64,000 bases of DNA from Cunninghamella blakesleeana (lineage: Eukaryota; Mucoromycota; Mucoromycetes; Mucorales; Cunninghamellaceae): positions 513,501 to 577,500 of the forward strand of contig JAFCIZ010000011.1 of the NCBI GenBank assembly GCA_017871115.1, in the 5' to 3' direction. The first letter of the stretch is position 1. Every line of letters starts with the position of its first letter. Position numbers and translations under genes: made by a program. The notes under the pieces are model-generated. The model did not search any database. It worked only from the letters and a program-made list of their open reading frames with translations, and had not been told where the DNA came from. Below, piece after piece: positions 31,445 through 33,651 of this stretch.

Positions 31445-31966
31445 GGCCAGGATACAATTCATTTGATAAAGAATTGACTCAATTGAGAAATGAAGCCGAA
31501 ATGAAAACATACAAATTAAAAAACAAATTAATCCTTTTGAAACGGAAAAATGAAAATATTTATTGAAATTTCTACTTGTTAAATTCCATATTGCCAATAT
31601 CGAAGCACCTTTTCGATACGATTATGAATTTAATATTCATTTAAGAGAAAAATTTTTATGAATTTTGATTATGATCTTTTAGATGTGAACGAAATCATCA
31701 TTGGATTAATAAATTGACCGGACCAGCAGCTCATTTTTATTCTGCCACTCACCCTTTGGATCTGGTAGAAGGAAGAGCAAAAAAAAATAATAAGAAAACT
31801 GATTTATATTGGTAATAGTTGTTGGATTGGTAGAAAAGATATTATTTGTCCAGGTGTCAAAATAGGTAGTGATGTCACTGTTACCACCAGTTATATAGTA
31901 AGATTTTTCTAATTTTGTAATGGTGGTGGATGTACCAGCTAAAATTATTAATAATATACAGTTAAA
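31445..31966 (+). pseudogene. Maltose/galactoside O-acetyltransferase (NodL/Maa-like) relic
   Basis: Fragments in family order but in different frames with stops. Near 31450 is the N-terminal YNSFDKELTQLRNEAE. Near 31600 is IEAPFRYDYEFNIHLREKF. Near 31725-31770 is GPAAHFYSATHPLDLVEGR. At 31806-31875 is IGNSCWIGRKDIICPGVKIG, the left-handed beta-helix hexapeptide region. Near 31928 is VDVPAKII. Intact members transfer acetyl from acetyl-CoA to sugars. Frameshifts and premature stops (for example after 31560 and near 31660) show it is no longer coding. The active-site His position (HFYSATHPLD) is still readable. Confidence 0.8.
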
Positions 31967-32040: not shown

Positions 32041-32485
32041 GGCTATATAAAACTCCATAAAAATTTTTCCTTCATATAATTAAAAGTTTATTTATTTTTA
32101 TAAAAAAAAATAATTAGGTTAATCAACACTCCCATCGCAAGCATTATCTTGATCTGGTAATGAGGGTTTGGTATTCTCAGCCTTATAGTTTATATAAAAT
32201 TTATAAAGGTATATAAAAAATATATATACATAAGGGCTCCCCTAGTTGATTAACCAATTAAAAATAAAAAATAAACTATGATCCCCAACAATAATTTTTT
32301 TTTTTAAAAAAAAAATAAAAGATCAAAAACCCATACCCATATAATAAAATAAAAAGATGAAAGTGAGTAAAAAGCGTTTATATATACATATGTGCATTAC
32401 TATTATTATTATTATTACAATTTTGATTACCTTTTACAATGGAACTATTTTAAGAAGGAAATATTAAAATGATGAGACTTAAAAA
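32041..32485 (-). other. THI5 3' region with candidate regulated intron and poly(A) signal
   Basis: Read on minus from the THI5 stop: a candidate 5' splice site AAAAG|GTAATC (GG at 32431-32430), then the TPP aptamer (32255-32117), then AATAAATAAA (32096-32087), then a candidate acceptor TTTATATAG (AG at 32044-32043). Splicing between these would remove both aptamer and poly(A) signal. The splice sites are predictions from sequence only. Confidence 0.45.
32117..32255 (-). ncRNA. TPP riboswitch aptamer (THI element)
   Basis: Minus strand, 139 nt. P1 is a perfect 11-bp helix (GGTTAATCAAC at 32255-32245 with GTTGATTAACC at 32127-32117). The core follows the TPP consensus in order: GGGGAGCC (P2/P3 5' side), P3 closed by GCC-CTTAT/ATAAGGC around an AT-rich extension of about 40 nt, CTGAGA in J3-2, ATACC, ACCCTCATTACC (P4), GATCAAGATAATGCTTGCGATGGGA (P5 loop and return, here given in parts: AGATAATGCTTGCG). 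CTGAGA and the GATAATGC..GCG motif contact the pyrimidine and pyrophosphate parts of TPP. It lies 230 nt downstream of the THI5 stop on the same strand, and no minus-strand gene follows it, so it belongs to the THI5 3'UTR. Confidence 0.93.
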
Positions 32486-33651
32486 TTAAGCCGAAGCAAC
32501 TTGAGGTTGTTGTTGTTCTTGACAACAAGCAGAAGTACGACAAAATTCTTTATCTTGTTTTTTTTCATCGAATTGTTTCAAAACACCAGTATCAATAGTA
32601 GGATAAATAAAGCCAGGAGCTGATTCAGGAAGTAAATCCCAAGTCAAGAAATCATTAGTTTGATTTTGTTTAAAAGAAGCATCAACGATATTTAAACGTT
32701 GACAATACTTGGTAACTTTATTCCAATCACGATCGACATTTTTAAGATCGCGAGACATATAACGGAAGGAGCGCTGATAAATCTTACGGTTTACAATAGA
32801 ATTCATCCATGGTTTCATATCCACAAATACTTCATATGCTTGGGATGGATTGGCAAACATATAATCGGCACCACGTTTCACTGCCTTCATAAACTTTTTC
32901 ACCTTTTCAGGGTTTTCATGAATAAACTTGTCATTACCAATCATAAGAATCTATATAAAAAAATAATTAAAGTTAGATTATTTTTTTTAGAAGCGTGTCG
33001 TTTTATTTTTTAAATAAAAAAAGTAAAATAAAATTAACCACTTACAGAGCAGAAACAGCAACAACCTAAATCTGCCAATTCATCAATACGTAGCATTTGC
33101 ACATCATCAGGAGAACGACCATGTTGAACAGACCATTCTTCCAATTCGACCATTTGAACATTTTCAAGCCCAATACCACAATCGATTTCACCATCCATTA
33201 ATGCTTTGGAAACATTCATACCTACGCGAATAGCTTGATAATCAGTATCAGGATTCATACCATATTGGCGAGCTAAATCGTCCACTTGAATTTTTCCAAA
33301 TTCACCAACGTAACCAATTCTTTTGCCCTTCAAGCTTTCAAATGAACCATCAATTTTATTTTGATGTTTTAAATAAATCACACCCGTAAAAGGTTCATCT
33401 AATAAAGTGCCAATGGATTGAATATCATACCCACGGCTTTTTCCAGCGATGGTATGGATCATAGCTTTACATCCTAAATCGGCTTTACCAGATCCAATGA
33501 TTTCCGTAACATCGGATGGATTATTTGGTTCCATAATGGCCACTTGGATCCCTTCTTCTTGGAAATAACCTAATTTATCGGCTAAGAATAATGGTAAGTG
33601 GTATGGTGTAGCATGCCAGTTTAATAAACAAGTGATTTTTTCGGTAGACAT
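32486..33651 (-). CDS. THI5: 4-amino-5-hydroxymethyl-2-methylpyrimidine phosphate synthase (Thi5/Nmt1)
   Basis: Exons on minus: 33046..33651 and 32486..32950; 356 aa, intron phase 0. Makes the thiamine pyrimidine precursor HMP-P from PLP and a histidine of its own chain, so it is a single-turnover enzyme. His66 (donor) and Lys62 (PLP site) are present at exactly the yeast positions in GCKAMIHT; the iron-binding CCCFC motif is at about 197-201, just before the intron. N-terminal [12 protein letters not shown] and the GYVGEFGK region are typical of the family. Start chosen at the second ATG (MSTEKI), matching family N-termini; the upstream ATG would add five residues. Thiamine control is likely through the TPP riboswitch downstream of the stop. 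Confidence 0.96.

What the first reader, a model, noticed from the sequence alone, without database searches (positions are those of the whole stretch)
32117..32485. TPP riboswitch placed downstream of the THI5/NMT1 stop codon in a fungus
The minus strand at 32117-32255 carries a full TPP aptamer (11-bp P1, CTGAGA, GATAATGC..GCG core), 230 nt after the THI5 stop on the same strand. Classic fungal TPP riboswitches sit in 5'UTR introns or 5' regions of NMT1/THI4 and transporter genes; a 3'UTR position is the hallmark of plant THIC. I see no minus-strand gene downstream that could own it as a 5' element (only a plus-strand acetyltransferase relic), and no aptamer upstream of THI5. This would be a convergent or ancestral 3'UTR thiamine control in fungi.
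Basis: partly seen in the sequence, partly recalled or inferred. Interest (0 to 1): 0.92.

Follow-up and report, generated by a model that had tools for sequence, protein, structure and literature searches.

The report
Thiamine sensors after fungal stop codons
In the fungus Cunninghamella echinulata the vitamin-B1 RNA sensors that were found lie just after the protein-coding part of four genes, two of them thiamine-making genes, rather than before or inside them; this plant-like placement is unexpected for a fungus and could show how one sensor RNA was wired differently in different kingdoms.

Summary
A full-length TPP aptamer (RF00059, 52.2 bits, E 2.2e-8, just under the 54.3-bit gathering score) lies at window 32253-32112 minus; its P1 starts 225 nt after the THI5 stop. 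It is not alone: RF00059 finds four aptamers in this 32-Mb genome, and 4 of 4 lie on the same strand 161-225 nt after the stop of a complete gene: THI5, THI4 and two sugar-porter genes. P1 pairs far better than shuffles at all four. No downstream gene is a plausible owner. The organism is Cunninghamella echinulata or very close (THI5 99%). The two porters sit in separate old clades, so the 3' place may be ancient. In the papers I could see, fungal TPP riboswitches lie in 5'-UTRs or internal introns, except eIF5B of Postia; a 2024 survey puts Mucoromycota sugar-transporter aptamers in the 5'-UTR, which conflicts with this genome. Mechanism is unproven: candidate splice and poly(A) sites exist, but aptamer complementarity is no better than shuffles. 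Diatom 3'-UTR aptamers failed thiamine tests, so RNA data are needed. New variant of a known kind.

The parts
33046..33651 (-). THI5/NMT1 exon 1
   Evidence: gene model; Pfam NMT1 1.5e-69; one copy in the genome
32486..32950 (-). THI5/NMT1 exon 2 with the stop codon (ends at 32486)
   Evidence: same C-terminus as the Cunninghamella echinulata protein P0001, 352 of 357 identical
32261..32485 (-). 225-nt stretch between stop and aptamer; donor-like sites AAAG|GTAATC (G of GT at 32430) and GTATGG (32336)
   Evidence: GTAA count 4 against 1.25 expected (3% of shuffles reach it), but aptamer pairing no better than shuffles
32111..32260 (-). TPP aptamer with its extended P1 (Rfam match 32253-32112)
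   Evidence: RF00059 52.2 bits, E 2.2e-8; P1 better than 2000 of 2000 shuffles
32245..32255 (-). P1 5' strand
32117..32127 (-). P1 3' strand
32175..32180 (-). CTGAGA, the conserved J3-2 motif (name recalled)
32136..32138 (-). GCG of the pyrophosphate pocket
   Evidence: role from PMC11683625 section 7
32087..32096 (-). two overlapping AATAAA, possible poly(A) signals (speculative)
   Evidence: 39% of shuffles also hold one
32043..32052 (-). TTTTATATAG, possible 3' splice site (speculative)

Best explanation
It is a TPP aptamer in the 3' untranslated region of THI5, one of four found in this Mucorales genome (THI5, THI4, two sugar-porter-type transporters), all 161-225 nt after the stop. Most likely it works as a 3'-UTR riboswitch: when TPP is plentiful it binds the aptamer on the new transcript, changes how the 3' end is spliced or cut and polyadenylated, and so lowers the amount of mRNA. 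SHOWN: four aptamers with conserved core and well paired P1, their strand and place, complete coding regions before them, and that two of the genes make thiamine precursors. INFERRED: inclusion in the transcript, TPP binding, negative feedback. Best guess for the switch itself: a plant-THIC-like choice between splicing and an early poly(A) site (about 0.4 of the functional cases); control of the poly(A) site without splicing is nearly as likely (about 0.35).
For: RF00059 genome-wide gives four full-length matches, E 2.7e-8 to 1.5e-5, and the same four at E up to 10. 4 of 4 follow a same-strand stop by 161-225 nt. The genes are the single THI5, the single THI4 and two Sugar_tr proteins. C-termini agree with same-species proteins, so the aptamers lie behind real stops. 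P1 helices of four different sequences pair better than shuffles: 0, 0, 1 and 10 of 2000 do as well. CTGAGA and GCG are kept in all four. At MFS7 the next gene is convergent.
Against: No transcript, binding or expression data. All four score below Rfam's gathering score. The first look scored 49 of 695 candidates, so a 5'-placed divergent aptamer could be missed. Splice-site complementarity to P4-P5 is not beyond shuffles and splice or poly(A) landmarks are not the same at the four loci. Diatom 3'-UTR aptamers did not respond to thiamine (PMC9544697). PMC11683625 reports 5'-UTR places for sugar-transporter aptamers in Mucoromycota.
Confidence: 0.72

Rival explanations
1. The aptamers are the 5' leaders of separate downstream transcripts, the usual fungal arrangement, and only happen to follow these genes.
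For: At THI5 and MFS6 the next recognised same-strand gene lies downstream (catalase about 2.2 kb, PHO4-type phosphate transporter about 1 kb).
Against: The downstream neighbours have nothing in common; at MFS7 a convergent PHP-domain gene follows; within 1500 nt downstream the longest same-strand ATG frames are 42-49 codons, at MFS6 the start of the phosphate transporter; all four aptamers keep a narrow distance to the upstream stop.
Confidence: 0.05
2. A conserved 3'-UTR aptamer that does not regulate these genes in response to thiamine, as reported for diatom THIC, perhaps with another role.
For: Diatom 3'-UTR aptamers are well conserved yet gave no change in transcript level, splicing, polyadenylation or reporter (PMC9544697, passages).
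Against: The four genes are the first enzymes of both thiamine branches plus two transporters, the target set of known fungal TPP riboswitches (PMC5882874, PMC11683625); different P1 sequences that all pair suggest use.
Confidence: 0.15
3. A riboswitch, but through an intron that the gene models miss: a donor inside the last coding exon and an acceptor beyond the aptamer, so that TPP swaps the protein's C-terminus.
For: Introns are common in these genes and an acceptor-like TTTTATATAG lies 3' of the THI5 aptamer; internal-intron riboswitches are known in fungi (PMC5882874).
Against: The proteins end normally and match same-species predictions to the last residue; no shared downstream coding exon was seen.
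Confidence: 0.06
4. Chance match or relic.
For: All scores are under the gathering score.
Against: Exactly four hits in 32 Mb at E up to 10, two beside the only THI5 and only THI4 gene; P1 pairing.
Confidence: 0.02

Closest known systems
Plant THIC 3'-UTR TPP riboswitch (Wachter 2007, Bocobza 2007; seen only through the review PMC10226581, passages; the Wachter paper is not held)
   Same: Aptamer behind the stop codon of a pyrimidine-branch thiamine gene; donor-like sites between stop and aptamer
   Different: Fungus; THI5, THI4 and transporters instead of THIC; donor pairing with the aptamer not above chance; no transcript evidence
Fungal TPP riboswitches types I-IV (PMC5882874, sections and passages)
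   Same: Aptamer class and target genes THI4, NMT1/THI5, transporters
   Different: Those lie in 5'-UTR introns, internal introns or 5'-UTRs; here 4 of 4 lie behind the stop. The one 3'-UTR case there is eIF5B of Postia placenta, which its authors could not validate
TPPsw-SUGAR of Mucoromycota and Basidiomycota (PMC11683625, passages and sections 7 and 12)
   Same: TPP aptamers at sugar-transporter genes in Mucoromycota
   Different: Reported as consistently 5'-UTR; here both are 3'. Cunninghamella is not named in the main text
3'-UTR TPP aptamers of algae and diatoms (PMC4260697, PMC9544697, passages)
   Same: 3'-UTR place, including THI5-like genes of Aureococcus and Micromonas; AATAAA touches P1 at MFS7 as AACAAA overlaps P1 in Phaeodactylum THIC
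   Different: Other lineages; the diatom one did not respond to thiamine

Membership tests
RF00059 TPP aptamer | Full-length match to the covariance model | tested here: met
   model 1-105 of 105 for all four, E 2.7e-8 to 1.5e-5
RF00059 TPP aptamer | Score at or above the gathering score 54.3 | tested here: not met
   52.2, 46.4, 43.8, 41.1 bits; so membership rests on E-value, core motifs, P1 and gene context
RF00059 TPP aptamer | CTGAGA and GCG core kept, P1 paired | tested here: met
RF00059 TPP aptamer | Binds TPP | not testable with these tools
   needs in-line probing or similar
Fungal TPP riboswitch types I-IV (PMC5882874) | Aptamer in a 5'-UTR, a 5'-UTR intron or an internal intron | tested here: not met
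   4 of 4 behind the stop
Plant THIC-type 3'-UTR riboswitch | Aptamer in the region behind the stop of a thiamine gene | tested here: met
   THI5 225 nt, THI4 205 nt; that this region is transcribed was not tested
Plant THIC-type 3'-UTR riboswitch | Donor site between stop and aptamer complementary to P4-P5 | tested here: inconclusive
   pairs exist, but 10-78% of shuffles do as well by helix and 31-50% by duplex energy
Plant THIC-type 3'-UTR riboswitch | TPP-dependent splicing removes a poly(A) site and lowers mRNA | not testable with these tools
   no RNA data
TPPsw-SUGAR | Aptamer at a sugar-transporter gene in Mucoromycota | tested here: met
   MFS6 and MFS7, Sugar_tr 1.9e-98 and 4.2e-86
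TPPsw-SUGAR | Located in the 5'-UTR of the transporter | tested here: not met
   193 and 161 nt after the stop

The most novel reading that the evidence does not exclude
Mucoromycota as a group use 3'-UTR TPP riboswitches: thiamine control by 3'-end choice is an old fungal mode, present before the two transporter clades split and moved to 5' introns or lost elsewhere, and published 5'-UTR assignments in Mucoromycota need revision. If the switch is a splicing or poly(A) choice as in plants, a plant-type riboswitch works in fungi on four genes at once.
Probability: 0.35. Interest if true: 0.85.

Novelty: new variant of a known kind. Interest (0 to 1): 0.68.

Why it matters
TPP riboswitches are the classic riboswitch of eukaryotes. 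Plants place the aptamer after the stop; fungi in the papers I saw place it before the coding region or in internal introns. A fungus with four 3'-placed aptamers makes an open question testable: is the 3' mode old or did it arise several times, and can a 3'-UTR aptamer control mRNA outside the plant THIC context, given that diatom ones seem not to? It also points to two sugar-porter-type proteins as candidate transporters of thiamine or a precursor, and says where to look for riboswitches in Mucorales.

Tried and rejected
Splice-site masking as in plants: tested by duplex energy (fraction of 500 shuffles at least as good: THI5 0.50, THI4 0.31, MFS6 0.43, MFS7 0.40) and by contiguous helices with P4-P5 (300 shuffles; upstream 0.37, 0.10, 0.41, 0.78; downstream 0.27, 0.86, 0.04, 0.76). 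Not supported beyond chance; the 0.04 (MFS6 downstream) is one of eight tests and was not followed. In one search, GTAA is enriched before the THI5 aptamer (4 against 1.25, 3% of shuffles) but absent at THI4 and ordinary at MFS6 and MFS7; AATAAA follows P1 within 30 nt in 3 of 4 loci (18-74% of shuffles hold one in those three); branch+acceptor patterns differ. No common design was found.

5' leader of a downstream gene: rejected by the neighbours.

Further aptamers: RF00059 at E up to 10 gave the same four, with 49 of 695 first-look candidates scored. I built no covariance model of my own. The MAFFT alignment of the four misplaced MFS7 and was not used for pair counts.

I did not use the scans of viral or prokaryote contigs.

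Literature searches: (8 answered; one search found 0 papers, probably because of its wording). In their listings and the passages I read I saw no 3'-placed TPP aptamer on a fungal THI4, THI5 or transporter gene. Moldovan et al. 2018 (Fungal Genet Biol 114:34) was seen only as a citation and not read; it could hold such cases.

Full report
WHAT IS THERE. The minus strand of the window carries a THI5/NMT1 gene in two exons, 33651-33046 and 32950-32486. The spliced protein matches Pfam NMT1 (1.5e-69) and the yeast THI5/THI13 structures (best E 1.8e-123). It is 99% identical (352 of 357, to the last residue) to a protein of Cunninghamella echinulata, so the genome is that species or a very close one, a Mucorales fungus. 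The extended P1 of a TPP aptamer begins 225 nt after the stop: aptamer 32260-32111, Rfam match 32253-32112, 52.2 bits, E 2.2e-8 in the local scan. It misses Rfam's gathering score of 54.3 by two bits, so the default scan of the window is empty.

IT IS ONE OF FOUR. RF00059 against the whole 32-Mb genome gives four matches, all full length: 52.2, 46.4, 43.8 and 41.1 bits, E 2.7e-8 to 1.5e-5, and the same four at E up to 10. The search scored 49 of 695 first-look candidates, so it is not proof that no other exists. The other three lie in loci L005, L006 and L007. In 4 of 4 a gene on the same strand ends shortly before the aptamer (stop to P1): THI5 225 nt, THI4 205, a sugar-porter gene called MFS6 here 193, and its relative MFS7 161. 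Pfam: Thi4 5.4e-108; Sugar_tr 1.9e-98 and 4.2e-86. THI5 is single (two matches, its two exons). THI4 gives one match of 326 bits; the other four of five are weak pieces of 24-27 bits. TMP synthase and thiamine pyrophosphokinase domains lie on contig C2, where none of the four aptamers is.

SELECTION ON THE APTAMERS. The four P1 helices differ in sequence but pair: -17.0, -12.8, -12.2 and -11.7 kcal/mol; of 2000 shuffles of the 3' flank 0, 0, 1 and 10 pair as well. CTGAGA and GCG are intact in all four. This argues for maintained aptamers rather than relics.

WHY THE 3' REGION IS THE RIGHT FRAME. The coding regions before the aptamers are complete: same-species proteins agree over the whole length or to the last residue (THI5; THI4 99% over 100%; MFS6 96% over 100%; MFS7 482 of 487, where the database protein starts ten residues later). 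The genes after them share nothing: at THI5 a catalase about 2.2 kb on, and frames like an acetyltransferase on the other strand; at MFS6 a PHO4-type phosphate transporter that starts about 1 kb on; at MFS7 a convergent PHP-domain gene; at THI4 the frames of 70 aa or more up to 4.9 kb downstream are on the opposite strand except one low-complexity frame of 70 aa, and the one tested has no Pfam match. The MFS7 case speaks most strongly against a 5' leader.

AGE. In this genome MFS6's best relative is MFS7 (about 50% identity over most of its length; next 38%; 42 matches, a lower bound). In a tree of 41 rows MFS6 groups with Absidia and Halteromyces proteins (100/99) inside a Mucorales group of 15 rows (81/89, weak), and MFS7 with other Absidia and Halteromyces proteins (100/100), then with Rhizopus and Choanephora (9 rows, 97/92), then with Basidiobolus and Phycomyces (13 rows, 100/100) (midpoint root; three own-genome rows and one Umbelopsis row are long and unsure). 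The split therefore predates the separation of these genera. That both copies carry a 3' aptamer suggests, without proving it, that the 3' place is as old.

HOW IT MAY WORK. In plants TPP binding frees a donor splice site between stop and aptamer; splicing removes a poly(A) site; longer, less stable mRNA results (PMC10226581, passages). Donor-like sites exist at each locus (AAAG|GTAATC at THI5; TTAG|GTAAGG four nt after the MFS6 stop; CTAG|GTAATT at MFS7; GTAT-type and GTGT-type sites only at THI4), and at MFS6 and MFS7 the same TAGGTA could pair with TACCTG of the aptamer. Shuffles do as well. AATAAA follows P1 within 30 nt in 3 of 4 loci, not beyond chance. I hold a 3'-UTR riboswitch as likely and the exact switch as open.

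AGAINST. There are no transcript, binding or expression data. Diatom 3'-UTR aptamers, also well conserved, did not respond to thiamine in transcript, 3'RACE or reporter tests (PMC9544697, start of abstract, passages). The 2024 survey of medically relevant fungi puts sugar-transporter aptamers of Mucoromycota in 5'-UTRs (PMC11683625, passages and sections); either lineages differ or strand and side were assigned differently. I could not open its supplements, and its main text does not name Cunninghamella.

COMPARED WITH WHAT IS KNOWN. Aptamer class and target genes are known. 3'-UTR TPP aptamers are known in plants, algae and diatoms (PMC10226581, PMC4260697, PMC9544697, passages). The fungal 3'-UTR case that I saw is eIF5B of Postia placenta, not validated by its authors (PMC5882874, section 5 part 1; its conclusions also list 3'-UTRs). 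[quoted passage not shown] A fungus in which all detected TPP aptamers stand after the stop of thiamine-related genes is a new variant of a known kind.

Noticed in passing
L005:3542-4663 (+): THI4 of this fungus is of plant type: in the PDB its best match is Arabidopsis thiazole synthase (436 bits, against 331 and 286 for the next two entries), and in the protein search plant proteins follow directly after Mucoromycota ones, with chytrid and Mortierella-group proteins among them (120 best of 3049 listed). Probably an old form that changed in other fungi.
   Followed up: partly
L005:4446-4552 (+): The last THI4 intron has an unusual donor (GTTAGA) and follows an exon of only 39 nt; retention would bring an early stop.
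   Followed up: no
L006:4737-6663 (-), L007:5066-6866 (-): Relatives of the riboswitch-linked transporters occur in social amoebae (Heterostelium, Acytostelium; about 56% identity) and group with Umbelopsis proteins (100/100), which could mean gene transfer between fungi and amoebae.
   Followed up: no
31675-31912 (+): Short plus-strand frames that look by eye like pieces of a hexapeptide-repeat acetyltransferase, convergent to THI5; a family search was not done because of stop codons.
   Followed up: partly
L006:4445-4543, L007:4798-4904: Both transporter aptamers are 3' here, while PMC11683625 says Mucoromycota sugar-transporter aptamers are consistently in the 5'-UTR; the published assignments deserve a re-check of strand and side.
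   Followed up: partly
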